From NCBI GenBank assembly GCA_019671135.1, contig JAHRHY010000013.1, positions 682,001 through 746,000 on the forward strand: a DNA stretch of 64,000 nucleotides, given 5' to 3'. Of the stretch, positions 1,556 to 36,590 are shown in pieces; within the stretch, counting starts at the first letter, position 1, and each line of letters opens with the position of its first letter. Both the position numbers and the translations under genes were made by a program. The DNA is from Linnemannia hyalina (lineage: Eukaryota > Mortierellomycota > Mortierellomycetes > Mortierellales > Mortierellaceae). The notes below the pieces were generated by a model that was not told the origin of the DNA, did not search any database, and was given only the letters and a program-made list of their open reading frames with translations.

Positions 1556-3577
1556 CTAGAGCATAGGATCGGGGAACCGCGCGGGCCATTCTTGGTGAAG
1601 ACACATCCGGAAGGCAAGCCAGCCCACCACCTGCTCCTCGCTCACAGGCTTATCGTCGTCGTCCTCCTCCTGTCGCTGTTGCTGAGGTGCTTGTGATCGC
1701 GACGGCCTCGAAAAAGCACCGTCGTTCTTTGTCCGGATCGCCCTCAACTCTGGCCACCACTGCCGGAACCACTGAGCCTCCTTCCTCGTCATCTTGTTCT
1801 CCCACCCAGAAACCGTCAACTCCTTCATTCTCCTCAGCCCTTGCAATGCCTCCAATCCGGCCTCCAGCGTCCACGGTAACCCACGCGGCACCTCATGCAA
1901 GAAATGTTCGATCTCGTATCCACCCGACAAATCCAAAACCTCCAACTCTGTGAGCTTGCCTAGCTGAAGGAACAAAGCCTCTTGAACCTGAAGGAAGCGG
2001 TTCGAGTCTGCAGGGAGGGCATCCCAGAGTGGGAATCCAAAGAAGAGATTGTCGGATTCCCAAAGCCCTGAATCCGGTCGGGCGAGACAGATGAGCAGTT
2101 GGAGTTTCTGGAGTTTAAGACATGCCCAAGGTTTGGGAGAATGGAAGACATCTTCTCCCCAGAGAACGCCTGCGGGGCCTTTGAAGTCGAGGAGGGCGGG
2201 GAGATGGCAGAGCAGGGACTGGAGATCGGTGCTCTTGATGCGTTCACTTTCTGAGAGGTCCAGGTGTGTCAGTTGCTGGCATAAATTGGGATACGCGGTC
2301 AGGTCCGCGACAAAGGTTGGTTGGAGGGTCAATTTGAGGAGTTCGAGCGACCGGAAGGGAGTTTTGGTGGATGATAGGAGGTTGTGTGAGAAGGCTTCTG
2401 GCATGAGACTTCCTTGATCGTGTTTGAACCCTGTAAGCAGGGGACAGTTCCATTCGACGACGTGAGGGGTGAGCAGGGCATGTGGCGAACCCTCGATTCG
2501 GGCTCTGCTGATTTCAATGAGAAAGGAAGGGGGGAAAGCACAGTCAACGAGTTCTAGGTGTTGGAGGTGTGGGCCGTGGATTTTGAAGATTCCTGGGGCG
2601 AGGAACTGTGGGCGGTCAAGGGTCAGGGATTGTATGTTGGCTAGGTAGAGGGTTGGCTGGATTTGAGTTGGCTGCAGGAGAGTCGGTGACGATGTTGTTG
2701 GTGATGTTGGGGCAATCGAGACTGTGGATATCTCCTGCTCCGGTTCCAAGTCAGGCCACATCGCCGTGGACACTAGATGCAAAGACATCAAACATAGCCG
2801 TCGAAGCTCGGGGCAGTTCTCAATGATCCTGTTGATCTCCGCACAAGTAGCCGTGAAAGAATCCAGTGCCAGATCGACCAGACAATGAGGTGATTGCTTC
2901 GACAGCAAGTGCCGTCCAATCCGTTCCATATGCACGTTCGAGTCGCCGATCCAATGGAAACTTCGGAGGTTGGGGTGATACTCTAGCAAGGCCAGGATCC
3001 GGTTACTGGATTTGACGAACCAAGTCTGATTCTGCTGATTGTATCGAAATGCAACTGTAGTTCTGAACCGTGCTGGTGGGGCAGCTCCCAAAGAGTCGTT
3101 ATCATCATGCCCATAGTCATCATCGTCGTCCCCTTCTCGAGTCCAATAACAGAGTCCCTGAACGATCGGGCTGAGCTTGACGGTGAGGTGTAACAAGTTC
3201 GGACAGTACTGGATCGGATCGAGGTTATAGTCCGAAGACCTTAGCACACTCTTGGATCCCTGACCACCCCCAGCACCCATCCCACTATATTTCCCCCGAA
3301 TGATATTCGGGTTAACCTTCTGCATGACCGAAGGTTCCTCCAGAACAAGAGACTGGGTATGAATCCCATAAGCGCGCCACTGGGTATGACTGAGGATAGG
3401 TTGGAAGGTGCGGTGGCCGAGGACAAGGTCACGGTAGAGGAGTCGTCGAAAGTCTGCTCGCCAGTCCTTGCAGACGTTCATGCAAGCGATGAGGTCTCGC
3501 TTGCTGTTGTTGGTGTTAGAGATGAGGAAGAGGCCGATGTGGGTCCTGATCTCTGAGAGCGAGAGGGCTTCTTGCAT
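1556..3577 (-). CDS. F-box/LRR-like protein
   Basis: A single-exon gene of 673 residues. I chose the internal Met at 3577 (MQEALSLSEIRTHIG) because the 22 upstream residues are Gln/Thr-rich and unlike paralogues, while the F-box-like helices (SLSEIRTHIGLFL...ACMNVCKDWRADFRRLLYRDLVL) start immediately after it; the frame is open up to 3643. The middle carries RNI-like repeats (CPNLLHL, NCPELRRLCL, LQHLELVDCAF, LPALLDF), and the C-terminal third has LGKLTELEVLDLSGG and a QWFRQWWPELRAI block typical of the family end. A poly-acidic stretch lies near residue 160 and an Arg/Gln-rich, Glu/Asp-rich stretch near the C-terminus. It is in the same orientation as the 3760-4884 gene. Presumed role: substrate receptor of an SCF ubiquitin ligase, by family resemblance only. 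Confidence 0.82.
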   Translation of the reverse strand: MQEALSLSEIRTHIGLFLISNTNNSKRDLIACMNVCKDWRADFRRLLYRDLVLGHRTFQPILSHTQWRAYGIHTQSLVLEEPSVMQKVNPNIIRGKYSGMGAGGGQGSKSVLRSSDYNLDPIQYCPNLLHLTVKLSPIVQGLCYWTREGDDDDDYGHDDNDSLGAAPPARFRTTVAFRYNQQNQTWFVKSSNRILALLEYHPNLRSFHWIGDSNVHMERIGRHLLSKQSPHCLVDLALDSFTATCAEINRIIENCPELRRLCLMSLHLVSTAMWPDLEPEQEISTVSIAPTSPTTSSPTLLQPTQIQPTLYLANIQSLTLDRPQFLAPGIFKIHGPHLQHLELVDCAFPPSFLIEISRARIEGSPHALLTPHVVEWNCPLLTGFKHDQGSLMPEAFSHNLLSSTKTPFRSLELLKLTLQPTFVADLTAYPNLCQQLTHLDLSESERIKSTDLQSLLCHLPALLDFKGPAGVLWGEDVFHSPKPWACLKLQKLQLLICLARPDSGLWESDNLFFGFPLWDALPADSNRFLQVQEALFLQLGKLTELEVLDLSGGYEIEHFLHEVPRGLPWTLEAGLEALQGLRRMKELTVSGWENKMTRKEAQWFRQWWPELRAIRTKNDGAFSRPSRSQAPQQQRQEEDDDDKPVSEEQVVGWLAFRMCLHQEWPARFPDPML

Positions 3578-30145: not shown

Positions 30146-30898
30146 TATGGGAGAAGAAATTGCGTTAACATTGATCAATGTCAAAAACATGACTTAATAG
30201 AAGGTACAACTTTCAACTCTTTTTACATTATTGCGGAGATCGATCGCTCCATTCCTGTAATGATTTTTTTTGTCTTTGAGAGAGAGAGAGAGAGAGAAAG
30301 AGAGGGAGGGGACTCGTTCTCTTGAGTCCACGCAAGCAAACCCCACGGCGCTGACTTGCACTGCCTGTCTACTCTATCGAACCATCTTAACCACCATCTG
30401 TCTTCATAAAAGGCCCTTAAATTGCGCTCGGAGAAGAAAAAAAAGAGTTGTTCTTTCGAACAAATCTATAGAACAATGGGCTTAATCTCAGCAGATCGTA
30501 GCAACAAGGCTACTCTACTGCTTACAATACCCCGTTCAATTAAAGTCGTCCGCAATGGATTTATCTCTTTCGATATTTGGAATTAACATTAGCAGGAACC
30601 TCACAAAGCCTTTCCGCTCTGCAACGTAACCCCATGTAGTATGATCATGGACCCGAGAGTCTATTCGTATTCAACTAAAAATCGGAAAAAGGCAGTAATT
30701 GTCGCGTTCTAGCACGGGTTCTGACTTATAGGCGTTCAGCCGTAACCCAACGGATGATAGCTTCGGGCCATTGCCTGCTCACGCAAGCCCAAATTATGTT
30801 TGTGTTACCATACCCTTGAATTTTTCCTCAGTGCCCCTTGGGTTTTGTAAGTCAACGCCAAGAAACCTTCCAATCATTCCAAAGAAACATGTACAGAG
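30146..30898. other. Intergenic region with GA microsatellite and one copy of a 20-bp direct repeat
   Basis: No gene recognised. A GA run lies at 30278-30300. The first copy of a 20-bp direct repeat (ATACCCTTGAATTTTTCCTC, 30810-30829) lies here; its identical partner is at 31098-31117, on the far side of the 12-bp tandem array. Confidence 0.55.
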
Positions 30899-31968: not shown

Positions 31969-34900
31969 ATGTATTCTGCAGAGTTTTATAACTGGTGCAA
32001 GGTCGAACTGTTGCTTGTAAAGGCGTCGGAATGTCTGAGAAAGGCGTTTGAGCAAAGTTGGCAACACAAGTACAAGGTGGCGTGGAGCAACTCGCCTGAG
32101 TGTGGACAGCACTTCACGAACAACGTGGGGTTAAAAGTATACCGACACGTAGGCAAGATTCAGAAGGAGTATCTGGAAGGCGGCGACATCAGAAAATGGG
32201 ACCTGACGATTTTCAACGCTATTTTCACCATGACCGATCTCAACAAAGACAAGGTGTTCCAAGGCAATCTTAAACGCTTAATGCCTATCCGAAACAGCAT
32301 TGCCCACCATTCAGACAAGAAAATCAGCACTCAAGAGTACCAACAGTACTGGAACGAACTGAAAGGCATCCTGTTGTTCCTAGGCGTTACGGACGAAGAG
32401 CTGGACGACATTATACATTCGCATTCGAGCGACTCCAAAATGTATATTATGACCGAAAACGTTAAAAAGTCGATCGAACTCAAGCATGAAGGCAACAACC
32501 TGCTAAAAGAGCAGAAATTCCTAATGGCAGTGACCAAATACACCGACGCCATCACTCTGCCGGGCATTTCAGACGGAGATCTTTCGGTTTTGTACTCCAA
32601 CAGGTCGTTTTGCTACCTAAAGCTAGGCAAATACGCCCAAGCCCTGGAAGATGCTAAGCTATCTAAGCGCCTAAACCCCGATTATCTCAAGGCGTACATC
32701 AGGCTCGGAAAGGCGTATGAGTCGCTGGGAAAATACGACAAGGCCATCAAAAATTTCGACAAAGCACTCAGCCTAGATATGAACAATGACGAAATACGGC
32801 GGATGCGATCGGACGCCAGAAAACTAAAGGGGCTGCAAGAGCGAGACAACGACCAAAGCATCAAGGATCTGAATTTGAAAAGTACACAGAAGTTCAAAGA
32901 CATGAAAAACAGGGACGAGTTCAAAAAGCTGCTGTTCAACTTCAATCCTGCACTGGAGCATGTCTGGGCCGGCCACGAATACCGCGATGATCAAAATTAC
33001 TACATGGCCGCAGAGTGCTACAAACAGGCAGCCGATATGCGTAATGCAGAAGGCATGTACAATCTGGCTCTGTTCATGATCAACGGGCACGGCGTCAGCA
33101 AAGACTACCCACAGGCGCTTAAACTACTGCTGGAGATCTCCAAGTTCGACGCATTCGACAAACACAAGGATCCTGTCGTTGGGGTGAAGGAGGCCGAACA
33201 CTGCATTGCATTGGGCCACCACGAAGGCAGCATTGCGGAGAAAAGTATTGAGCTGGCTGTAGTATGGTACGAGTAGTGTTTCTCAAGAACATAGTACATT
33301 CGCATTCGCATTCGCATTCGCATCATGTAAAATTAATGGAAACCCCTTTATTCGCATTCGCATTTGCGAAACACTAGGTACGAGAAGGCGATTTCGCATC
33401 GAAGCGGGATGTCGGCAAACAATCTGGCGCTTATGTATATGAACGGAGAAGGTGTGGTCAGGAACTTCAAACAGTCCGAGCAGCTGTTCTTATGTGCGCT
33501 GAACTACGGCGATCCGAACGCTATGGACAACCTTGTCAGTCTCTATCTGGCGTCTGGAAACATCAACAAGGCCGAGAAATTGAATGAGAAATCCAAAAAG
33601 CAGGGTTCGAAGCTTGCGCGCCTTAAGGAGAAAGCAATAGCCCAAATGATACTGGAGAGCAACGCAGACATCTCGGACGTAATCGATTGGGAAAAGGAGC
33701 TCAATCAGCCGTTCGAAAACATGACTATCCGTGAGAGAGTTTTCCGCAAACTTTCATACGAATACCCTGACAAATCGGAAGTCTTGGAAACACTGAAAGA
33801 CTTGGAGAGCATCAAGAACAAATCAGTCAGTGTGTCGCCCACCAGAATCACAAGAAATGGTTACAAGTACGATTTGGAGGTGTTGGCCAAGCGCAAGGAC
33901 AAATCAGAGTTTAGCAACCGGATGTACTTAGCTGTGCTGAACTATATGGAGGCCATGGTCGCATTTCACAGCATTGCACGGCACAGCATTGTTGTTCTCG
34001 ACAACGATTCAAGGTCGTTCATTGGCCGGCTGGCCATGTGCTACAAGCTGGAGCACTTTGTCGGATCCATGCCGATCGATATCCGCGAGGTCATCCGAAA
34101 GCACGTTCTTCTGCTTTTGTCATACAGCGACCGCACAGTAAAACACTGCGAAAACATCGACGAGCTGGCATTTAACCAGGACTGTAGAATCTGCCATGCG
34201 GTACTGAATATGCAATCCGACGAAAACATAGACTTTCTGACAGAATGCATCAAGAAGTATCCCAACAACAAGTTCTTCCTGGAGATTCGCGGGTGTCTGT
34301 ACAACTTCATCGACAAACACGAATTTGCACTGCGAGACTTCAATCGCATTGAGGAGATTTCGAAAGACGATGTGAACAACCTATATCACAAAGCCGCTAC
34401 GTTGAAGCTAATGGGCCGGGACAAGCAAGCAACAGACGCATACACCAAATTCCTATTGGTTGCGTCTGCGGACCACAGGAAGGTGCCCGAAGCCTACTAC
34501 TCCTTGGGGGTCTGCAGCATGTCGAATAGAAACACAGACAGCATCACGCGGCACTACGAACAGGGGCTGAACGCAGAGGAAAAGCAGATTCCGTTCTTCT
34601 TGCCGTACGAGTCGACGAGCAAAGAGATGCTTGAACTGATGCTGCGGACTATTGGAGGGCTCAGTAAGGTCAAGGAAAAACCTGTCGTCAAGCTGGCCGA
34701 TCCATTTAGGAAGGAGCTGATTGTGAACCACAGACGAGGCATCAGCGAGTACGGCAAGATCATGAGCAGTGACGAACACGCCAAGTTCAATTTCACAGCA
34801 AAGCCTTCGAAAAGCCAGAGCGCGCCACTGTCGTGGGTTGGACTGAAGTCTATATATCTGAACGAAATCAACCCCACTTTAGACCAGGTGCTTGACGGTT

Positions 34901-35280
34901 TTGTGCTGGAGCTCACGCTTATAACGGTGCCGTTCAACAACAACATGTCGATTTCCTTTGTTGCAGAAGATAGCAACTTGAATGTGCAGCGGGTCAGTCT
35001 GTACAACTTCGACAAAAAACACATCCTGGCGATTGGAGCAAAGATTAGCGTCATCAATCCATATCTTAGAACAGCCATGGACGGCAGGCCCATCATCAGA
35101 ATCGACGATCCAAACTCTGTCATTGTCTCTCCGCACCAAATAGTAGATATGTGCCACTATTGCGGGAAAGGCCAATCCAAGTATTCTTGCTCGAAGTGCA
35201 AACGGTCTAAATACTGTTCGAGGGAGTGCCAAGTATTGGACTGGAAGGAATATAGTCACAAACTGATCTGCATACCATAG
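31969..35280 (+). CDS. HEPN-TPR-Sel1-MYND zinc-finger protein, interrupted by a spliceable 111-bp insertion
   Basis: The start is the first ATG (31969); the frame is open from 31918 with only a TTG. Residues about 5-150 resemble the DZIP3-like HEPN domain, with the RNase-type R-x4-H motif R108-NSIA-H113. TPRs follow (about 164-280: KHEGNNLLKEQKFLMAVTKY, YSNRSFCYLKLGKYAQALED, AYIRLGKAYESLGKYDKAI), then Sel1-like repeats (about 325-500), more TPR-like helices (about 690-800) and a C-terminal MYND finger (about 1025-1062: CHYCGKG, CSKCKRSKYCSRECQ, HKLIC). The frame stops at 33274 inside an insertion. Removing 33267-33377 as a GT-AG intron joins VVWYE to KAISHRSGMSANNLALMYMN, one intact Sel1 repeat, giving 1066 aa. 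Its Lys/Asn/Asp/Ile-rich composition differs from its neighbours. HEPN with TPR or MYND partners suggests RNA cleavage or binding linked to protein scaffolding, possibly in defence; this is inference. If the insertion is not spliced, the gene is broken. Confidence 0.82.
33274..33376 (+). mobile_element. hAT-type MITE, 103 bp, acting as a possible introner
   Basis: Termini are TAGTGTTTCTCAA and, inverted, TAGTGTTTCGCAA: 13-bp inverted repeats with one mismatch, fitting the hAT terminal consensus YARNG. The element is flanked by an exact 8-bp duplication GGTACGAG (33266-33273 and 33377-33384), the size hAT transposases make. The interior has two clusters of ATTCGC hexamers (about 33297-33323 and 33350-33365) around an A/T-rich centre. 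It has no coding capacity. GT from the first duplication (33267-33268) and AG from the element's last A plus the first G of the second duplication (33376-33377) define a 111-nt intron whose removal restores the pre-insertion sequence. The donor (GTACGA) is weak and I see no strong branch site. Confidence 0.88.
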
Positions 35281-35631
35281 TGACCAGACGATGTGCTCAG
35301 AAGCACGTTGGTTCAAAGTTGATGGCGGGGGAAATTGAGGCAGAATAAATAGTACAGCATACCAGTTAAGTGTTCATAGCGACATTACTTTTTGATCCTT
35401 CGATGTCGGTTCTTCCTATCATACTGAAGCAGAATTCATGTTACTCAAGCAAACATCATCAAGAACATGGGCACTTCGTTCGGTGTTGGTCAAAAGCGAC
35501 CATCCACTCCGACGCTAGTGGCCAAGTCGTGCAATGCATGCCATAGGACTGATCACAGGATGAAGACCAACAAGTTTTACCCTTTTAACACTAAGTGTCA
35601 GTGAACAGAGCATAACGCAGTAAACACTACA
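35281..35631. other. Intergenic, no gene seen
   Basis: The 3' flank of the HEPN/MYND gene. No repeat or RNA gene recognised. Residual helicase homology may begin just before 35632, but I cannot trace it. Confidence 0.4.
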
Positions 35632-36590
35632 GCCTCGGATGTAGATCGCGATCTACTCGAAGGATTATCGGACGTGGCCAACAAGGTGTTTCAGAGTCCA
35701 AGCGATGAGTACAAACCCTTTGGAGGTGCCCCTGTCGTCATGTTTGGGGACTTTGGTCAATTGGGTCCCATCGTCAAAGGAGAACAGGCAGCTATGGGAA
35801 AGTGGGTGTTTGATTCGACCATCTTTAAGGATTTCAGTCGAGTCCGTCTCAGACAAGTGCATCATCAAGCCCAGGATCAGAACTTTGTCAGATTGCTGAA
35901 CGCTCTCCGGGATGGAAAAGATCAACCAAGAGACATTGAGCGTGTCAACGACATGTTGGAATCCCGATTGGCCGGTGATTACGAGACTGTGGTTAGGAAG
36001 GTCCTAAAGAAGAAGGCCCTCGTCATTGCTGGCACAAGGTTCAATGTCAAGAAAATGAATATGGCTTGTCTTTCCAAAATCCAGTCGACACTTTATCAAT
36101 CTGATGCTATCGACACTGCAGTGGGAGGAAAACCGTTGGAATGGCGCAAAGAATAAATTGAGCGCGAAACTGGTCTGGAAACTGAGCTTTGTTTGAAGGT
36201 TGGGGCTCGGGTTATGTTGACGGCCGATCTCGATATTGAACAAGACCTCGTCAATGGCGCCTTGGGAATCGTCCGTCAGGTCCAGGGCTCCTTTGTGTTT
36301 GTTAAAATGTAAAAGTCGGGGACGATCATCCAATTCAGTTGACATGTCCAGGAAACTTTGGACGGGCGTCAGAGTCGAAGACAGTTTCCCTTGAAACTTG
36401 CATTCTCTTTGACTGTCCATCGTGTTCAATCCCTTGCGTTGGACCGGATCATTGTCTCAGACTTTTTTGTCTCTGGTCAAGCCTACGTGACTTTGATCAG
36501 AGTCAGACGTCTGTCAGACCTTGAAGTCTTTCAGACACCGAATTCTTCTGCCATTCTTTTTTCTCTCAAGATGTCCGTCCTCACCTTTGA
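35632..36590 (+). pseudogene. Decayed PIF1-like DNA helicase, 5'-truncated
   Basis: One reading frame carries the second half of a PIF1-family helicase in order: SDVDRDLLEGLSDVANKVF and KPFGGAPVVMFGDFGQLGPI (helicase motif III, normally GDFxQLPP), then LRQVHHQ..QNFVRLLNALRDG, KKALVIAGTRFNVKKMN, ETELCLKVGARVMLTADLD (motif V region), LVNGALGIV, FPLKLAFSLTVHRVQSLALD (motif VI region, expected H-K-S-Q-G) and SGQAYVTLIRVRRLSDL. In-frame stops occur at 36154 and at two further points near 36310 and 36340. The Walker A and B motifs are missing. Motif VI has lost its conserved Lys-Ser-Gln-Gly. Such helicases are common in Helitrons and as free PIF1-like families in fungi; I see no Rep domain or Helitron ends, so the origin is open. 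Confidence 0.82.

What the first reader, a model, noticed from the sequence alone, without database searches (positions are those of the whole stretch)
33266..33384. A 103-bp hAT-type MITE sits in a coding exon and forms a perfect GT-AG intron with its own target-site duplication (candidate introner)
Seen directly: 13-bp terminal inverted repeats (one mismatch), an exact 8-bp duplication GGTACGAG on both sides, and an in-frame TAG right after the first copy. GT inside copy one and AG at the junction of element and copy two delimit 111 nt (37 codons); removing it rebuilds the pre-insertion sequence exactly and joins a split Sel1 repeat. Known: hAT elements make 8-bp duplications, and introners in some eukaryotic lineages create introns by this co-option. 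Inference: this element is an introner, or at least an insertion rescued by splicing. I know of no such case in this fungal group.
Basis: partly seen in the sequence, partly recalled or inferred. Interest (0 to 1): 0.93.

Follow-up and report, generated by a model that had tools for sequence, protein, structure and literature searches.

The report
Jumping gene probably spliced as intron
A 103-base piece of mobile DNA landed inside a protein-coding gene of a soil fungus and, by copying eight bases of its target, built what looks like a complete new intron that the cell could cut out without changing the protein; it fits an intron being born, but no RNA data were available to prove it.

Summary
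A 103-bp hAT-type MITE (33274-33376) with an exact 8-bp duplication interrupts an otherwise open 1066-codon gene of a Mortierellaceae fungus. All 23 aligned orthologues read straight through the site. Removing 33267-33377 (111 nt) gives 1066 residues, the length of 7 of those 23.
New support for splicing: the donor hexamer GTACGA is used by a native intron of this genome. By a profile from 12 native introns it scores within the native range and above 145 of 145 other GTs in the gene's exons (142 of 145 if that native intron is left out). The acceptor is TAG, as in 10 of 12. The intron's only YTRAY branch motif lies 41 nt upstream, just beyond the native 24-40. Only 0.17% of positions in the window's long ORFs would give a precise intron with so good a donor.
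The stronger claim, an introner, is not supported: 17 places, 12 independent sites; of 11 examined, 3 lie in coding sequence. One other, in a conserved single-copy hexose transporter, could be spliced in frame (+2 codons), but with a weak donor.
Best reading: a very young transposon-derived intron (about 0.7). Rival: recent gene-breaking insertion. RNA decides.

The parts
31969..33266 (+). host gene, coding exon 1 (HEPN_DZIP3-like, TPR, first Sel1 stretch)
   Evidence: ORF, Pfam, orthologues
33266..33273 (+). target-site duplication, copy 1, GGTACGAG
   Evidence: 8 of 8 identical
33267..33377 (+). predicted intron, 111 nt, GT-AG
   Evidence: removal gives 1066 aa, the length of 7 of 23 aligned orthologues
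33267..33272 (+). predicted 5' splice site GTACGA, inside TSD copy 1
   Evidence: 6.80 bits by a profile of 12 native introns, reached by 0 of 145 other GTs in the host exons; 4.53 bits, reached by 3 of 145, when the native GTACGA intron is left out
33274..33376 (+). hAT-type MITE, 103 bp
   Evidence: repeat family, alignment
33274..33286 (+). left terminal inverted repeat
33364..33376 (-). right terminal inverted repeat, one mismatch
33333..33337 (+). only YTRAY branch-point-like motif of the intron (TTAAT), branch A 41 nt from the last intron base
   Evidence: the T at element position 61 is C in 8 of 11 aligned independent copies
33376..33377 (+). predicted 3' splice site AG: last A of the element + first G of TSD copy 2
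   Evidence: sequence; TAG in 10 of the 12 native introns (listed in 57)
33377..33384 (+). target-site duplication, copy 2, GGTACGAG
33378..35280 (+). host gene, coding exon 2 (second Sel1 stretch by orthology, MYND finger, stop)

Best explanation
A non-autonomous hAT transposon (MITE) inserted recently into a coding exon at GGTACGAG. Staggered cutting and fill-in duplicated these 8 bases (8-bp duplications by hAT elements: established knowledge, recalled). Copy 1 then supplies the donor G|GTACGA. The element's last base A plus the first G of copy 2 forms the acceptor CACTA-G. The element's TTAAT can serve as branch site. The spliceosome removes 111 nt and the mRNA is the pre-insertion mRNA. 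Shown here: element, duplication, empty site in orthologous proteins, native-like signals, exact restoration. Inferred: transposition by a hAT transposase of this genome, and splicing in vivo.
For: Exact TSD and TIRs. 17 places with the core, 12 independent sites after merging six with shared flanks. A hAT dimerisation-domain gene on contig 24 ends in the identical 13-bp TIR. Orthologues: 0 of 23 aligned have a gap or extra residue at the site and 7 of 23 have exactly the spliced length, 1066. The donor is within the native range (leave-one-out 4.05-11.89 bits) and has the hexamer of a native intron in an actin-related gene. TAG acceptor; branch motif present. Of 35,469 positions in the window's ORFs of at least 250 aa, 5.1% would give some precise AGGT-type intron and 0.17% one with a donor as good by the full profile. 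No other stop or frameshift in 1066 codons, which fits a working gene or a very recent break.
Against: No RNA evidence. The finding was picked because it looked perfect, so 0.17% is not a clean probability. The copy has only one private substitution in 103 bp, so an intact gene is also expected if it was broken very recently. The donor profile rests on 12 hand-chosen introns, one of which has this very hexamer; without it the score falls from 6.80 to 4.53, near the bottom of the native range. A hexamer scan of about 165 kb found no enrichment of GTACGA upstream of acceptor-like motifs, but none for GTAAGT either. The branch distance (41 nt) is just beyond the native 24-40. RNA folding shows nothing special (z 0.24). 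Most copies of the family are not known to be at introns.
Confidence: 0.7

Rival explanations
1. A recent gene-breaking MITE insertion: the element is not (or only poorly) spliced, translation stops after residue 435, and the intron-like signals are a coincidence of the target site.
For: In-frame TAG right after TSD1. The element is nearly unmutated, so there was little time for decay. One other copy sits in an already degraded Sel1-type ORF, so insertions in coding sequence are not always rescued.
Against: Signals this good are expected at 0.17% of positions in the window's long ORFs; the gene is single-copy in this genome and conserved across the family.
Confidence: 0.22
2. Spliced, but from the alternative donor GTAGTG at 33273 (last G of TSD1 + element) to the same acceptor: 105 nt removed, protein gains two residues (Y-E).
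For: In frame, 1068 aa. The same geometry is the only simple option for the transporter copy L005.
Against: Donor score -3.16 bits against 6.80 for 33267; 103 of 145 other exonic GTs score at least as high; T at +5 occurs in 0 of the 12 native introns.
Confidence: 0.03
3. A true introner family: a MITE lineage that generates introns in many genes of this fungus and its relatives.
For: The ends TAGTG...CACTA complete half splice sites from suitable targets. The two copies in intact genes are both sense and are the only two of 11 aligned copies with both A23 and T61; T61 makes the TTAAT motif.
Against: Of 11 examined sites only 2 lie in intact coding sequence and 1 in a degraded ORF. L005's donor is weak. 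The enrichments are not significant: among the 8 exact TSDs, 2 of 2 intact-gene copies against 1 of 6 others are G......G (Fisher 3/28 = 0.11, my arithmetic).
Confidence: 0.05

Closest known systems
Intron created by the maize hAT element Ds (Giroux et al. [quoted passage not shown] title seen in the reference list of PMC3443670; content recalled)
   Same: hAT-type element in an exon, removed by splicing with signals at the element ends and the duplicated target (recalled)
   Different: Fungus, 103-bp MITE, exact restoration of the coding sequence predicted; splicing was shown in maize (recalled), not here
Introners with TIRs and/or TSDs (PMC9860276, passages seen; Micromonas, Aureococcus, Symbiodinium and others)
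   Same: DNA-transposon anatomy; a splice site recruited wholly or partly from the TSD; in most families mRNA length unchanged
   Different: Introners recur as introns in many genes. Here one good case in 11 examined sites. In the passages, that survey's fungal introners are Pezizomycotina and lack TIRs and TSDs
Amoebophrya introner elements (PMC7789003, passages seen)
   Same: Inverted repeats at the intron ends and direct repeats over the boundaries
   Different: Direct repeats of 3-5 nt, largely non-canonical splice sites, genome-wide spread
Recently gained fungal introns holding repeat elements (PMC8476143, passages seen: 15 introns in 12 genomes; Kolobok-H, PIF/Harbinger, TcMar-Fot1, Copia, Gypsy named)
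   Same: DNA transposons inside young fungal introns
   Different: hAT is not among the classes named in the passages (its supplementary list was not seen); those are described as likely remnants, whereas here TSD, TIRs and empty site are intact
AGGT transposon-insertion model of intron gain (review PMC3443670, passages seen; its table lists Oryza, Drosophila, Oikopleura, Zea)
   Same: Duplicated target supplies donor and acceptor
   Different: Here the A of AGGT comes from the element's own last base, so the target need only be GGT

Membership tests
hAT-type MITE | 8-bp target-site duplication | tested here: met
   exact at 8 of 12 independent sites, the window copy among them
hAT-type MITE | terminal inverted repeats, no transposase of its own, repeated in the genome | tested here: met
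   103 bp long; 12 places with both TIRs exact in their outer 9 bases, 17 with the core
hAT-type MITE | a hAT transposase with matching ends in the same genome | tested here: inconclusive
   28 hAT dimerisation-domain matches; the contig 24 gene ends in the identical 13-bp TIR; its 5' TIR was seen only as doubtful 3-mismatch candidates and no matching duplication was found
TE-derived spliceosomal intron | insertion absent from orthologues | tested here: met
   0 of 23 aligned orthologues have a gap or insertion at the site (protein level only)
TE-derived spliceosomal intron | splice signals as used by this genome | tested here: met
   12 native introns
TE-derived spliceosomal intron | spliced transcript | not testable with these tools
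   no RNA data
Introner | similar elements occur as introns in many genes | tested here: not met
   3 of 11 examined sites in coding sequence, 1 with a native-like precise intron
Introner | splice site(s) supplied by element and/or TSD | tested here: met
   sequence

The most novel reading that the evidence does not exclude
A hAT MITE subfamily in Mortierellaceae is becoming an introner. Its ends TAGTG...CACTA complete splice sites from suitable targets, one base change (C61T) gave it a branch site, and the two copies that carry both subfamily-specific bases sit, in sense, in conserved single-copy genes whose frames splicing would keep open. It would be, as far as my searches show, the first fungal introner with TIRs and TSDs, caught at its start.
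Probability: 0.15. Interest if true: 0.85.

Novelty: new member of a known kind. Interest (0 to 1): 0.58.

Why it matters
Intron birth is rarely caught with the source element, target duplication and empty sites all intact. If spliced, this is an almost unmutated example in an early-diverging fungal lineage: no paper in the held library has both 'introner' and 'Mortierell'. It makes the transposon route of intron gain directly testable: one RT-PCR, then population screening for the empty allele. The transporter copy offers a matched weak-donor case to ask how good the signals must be for an insertion to be tolerated.

Tried and rejected
De novo donor profiles from ORF gaps gave no candidates or drifted, and a hexamer scan gave no signal even for GTAAGT; one search ended with an error. 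I turned to introns of actin- and tubulin-family genes. Left out of the 12: one near-duplicate actin intron (L068), three uncertain gaps in L069, the ambiguous 930-nt gap in L072/L077, and the second copy of the L072 intron in L077. Two gaps in L070 gave no candidate. One kept tubulin intron (L073) is 1287 nt long, so intron lengths vary.

Hairpin as splicing aid: z 0.24, dropped. Gene or strand bias of the family: too few copies. Dating the insertion from host-gene decay: no orthologue DNA was within reach. The three protein searches (best identities 85-96%) showed no protein I could identify as this organism's own annotation, so annotation could not show a spliced model. tRNA scan of the window: none.

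Full report
WHAT IS THERE. The window lies on contig 5 of a 51.5-Mb genome in 50 contigs. The nearest named proteins of both genes studied are from Mortierellaceae (Mortierella, Podila, Linnemannia, Gryganskiella, Dissophora and others; the family name is recalled); the genus was not determined. The described element is exact: GGTACGAG 33266-33273, element 33274-33376, GGTACGAG 33377-33384.

THE HOST GENE. 31969-35280 encodes, with the element removed, 1066 residues without a stop, with HEPN_DZIP3-like, TPR, Sel1 and MYND domains (the second Sel1 is seen in the orthologue P0206). It is single-copy at the sensitivity used: the next own-genome hit has 31% identity over part of the query. I aligned 23 of the 29 proteins listed, leaving out P0006, P0228 and the four distant ones P0230-P0233. 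None of the 23 has a gap or extra residue around AVVWYE|KAISH (23 columns checked), and 7 of 23 are exactly 1066 aa. P0002, P0006 and P0007, outside that set, also read through. So the site is empty elsewhere, and apart from the insertion the gene is one open frame in this genome. This is protein-level evidence only: an intron spliced in an orthologue's gene model would be invisible.

THE ELEMENT FAMILY. BLAST gave 20 places, all 20 candidates scored; four are a related longer family beginning CAGTGTTTCTCAGAAATT or close to it. The core pattern gave 17 places, control 1. Six share flanks and the TSD AGCATGAA, so they are one insertion in a larger duplicated repeat; this leaves 12 independent sites. 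Exact 8-bp duplications: 8 of 12. Without: L004, L031, and the truncated L047 and L032. Complete copies are 103 or 91 bp. The window copy differs from the consensus of 11 independent copies at three bases; two (A23, T61) are shared with L005, T61 also with L002, so one is private; L005 has three private ones. A hAT-type transposase gene on contig 24 ends in the identical 13-bp TIR. Its other end is unclear, so it is a candidate relative of the driver, not a proven one.

WHERE THE OTHER COPIES SIT. 11 of 12 sites (all but L032) were examined by closing the site and reading all six frames within about 1.5 kb of flank; for six of them I also read the flanks, for L005 and L011 the whole locus. Three lie in coding sequence, all in sense: the window copy; L005, eight codons after the ATG of a hexose transporter; and L011 in an ORF upstream of Sel1 repeats. 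The L005 transporter reads as an intact 532-aa protein with the site closed; its next own-genome hit is 36%; its first 25 residues MSKQDTETGVVAAENLDRVEAPVTW are identical in P0093 and P0095, so the start codon is very probably real. The L011 ORF carries another foldback insertion (453 bp) and an in-frame stop before the Sel1 repeats, so it is probably already degraded. At the other eight sites the open stretches over the closed site are at most 139 aa; eight of these stretches, from seven sites (not L002), matched 0 Pfam families at E 0.1 (two were cut short as printed). That is no evidence of a coding exon, not proof of its absence.

SPLICE SIGNALS. To learn what this genome uses, I located introns in actin-, actin-related and tubulin-family genes by protein alignment and kept 12 clear ones (the dropped ones are named under Tried and rejected). 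All 12 have G at +5; 10 of 12 acceptors are TAG and 2 CAG; 11 of 12 have a YTRAY motif within 45 nt of the acceptor, 24-40 nt away (one also has one at 6 nt). One of the 12 has the same donor hexamer, GTACGA. With this profile the window donor at 33267 scores 6.80 bits; 0 of 145 other GTs in the host exons reach it; the native introns score 4.05-11.89 when each is left out of its own profile. Leaving the native GTACGA intron out, the window donor scores 4.53 and 3 of 145 reach it. The alternative donor at 33273 scores -3.16. The intron's only YTRAY, TTAAT, is 41 nt from the acceptor. The T that makes it is C in 8 of the 11 aligned copies (they read TCAAT).

CHANCE. Of 35,469 positions in the window's non-overlapping ORFs of at least 250 aa, 5.1% would give some precise intron with this element's ends, 1.36% one of the GGT type, and 0.17% a precise one with a donor at least as good by the full profile. 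With three coding insertions in the genome this is unlikely by luck, but the case was brought up because it looked perfect, so I use it as support, not as a test. For L005 the only simple option is GTAGTG...CACTAG (105 nt, +2 codons), with a donor of 0.45 bits that 35 of 145 exonic GTs of the window gene reach. It may be spliced poorly or not at all.

CONCLUSION. The element is a hAT-type MITE (nearly certain) that most likely now acts as a new, precise intron (about 0.7). The introner claim fails its main defining feature as tested here. Transposon-made introns are known: Ds in maize (title seen in a reference list; content recalled), introners in many protists (passages), and recently gained fungal introns with other transposon classes (passages). 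No paper in the library holds both 'introner' and 'Mortierell'; 'introner' with 'Mucoromycot' returns one, PMC8476143, of which I read passages. 'Intron gain' with 'Mortierell' returned 9 papers (listing); I read passages of one, PMC11291939, which had no match for 'transposable' or 'splice'. Six further searches were seen as listings, capped at 8 to 15 rows, and gave no such fungal case in a title or abstract start. Subscription papers are mostly not held, so this does not show that no report exists.

Noticed in passing
window 30462-30824 (-): 3' end of a 28S rRNA (Rfam RF02543, model 3004-3399), present as a dispersed repeat: 43 matches, 40 of 103 candidates scored, five of them about 3.69 kb apart on contig 13. 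Perhaps a 28S-derived mobile element; some may be true rDNA.
   Followed up: partly
L005 (contig 22 near 121,000): A second copy of the MITE sits eight codons into a conserved single-copy hexose transporter; TSD GAAACTGG; in-frame splicing possible with a weak donor.
   Followed up: partly
window 31969-35280: The host protein's more distant relatives include bdelloid rotifers (Rotaria, 32-33% identity): possible horizontal transfer.
   Followed up: no
window 35605-36156 (+): ORF that looks like a PIF1-type helicase fragment (from its translation; name recalled, not tested).
   Followed up: no
L011, positions 966-1418 in element orientation: A 453-bp foldback (inverted-repeat) insertion lies upstream of the MITE in the same Sel1-type ORF.
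   Followed up: partly
L002 (contig 6 near 1,791,500): A MITE copy lies about 190 bp downstream of a hAT dimerisation-domain match.
   Followed up: no
window 33274-33376, other reading frames: Two of the three forward frames of the window copy are stop-free inside the element; one of them ends in TA + the first TSD base, so a target starting with C or T could carry the MITE as 37 extra in-frame codons.
   Followed up: partly
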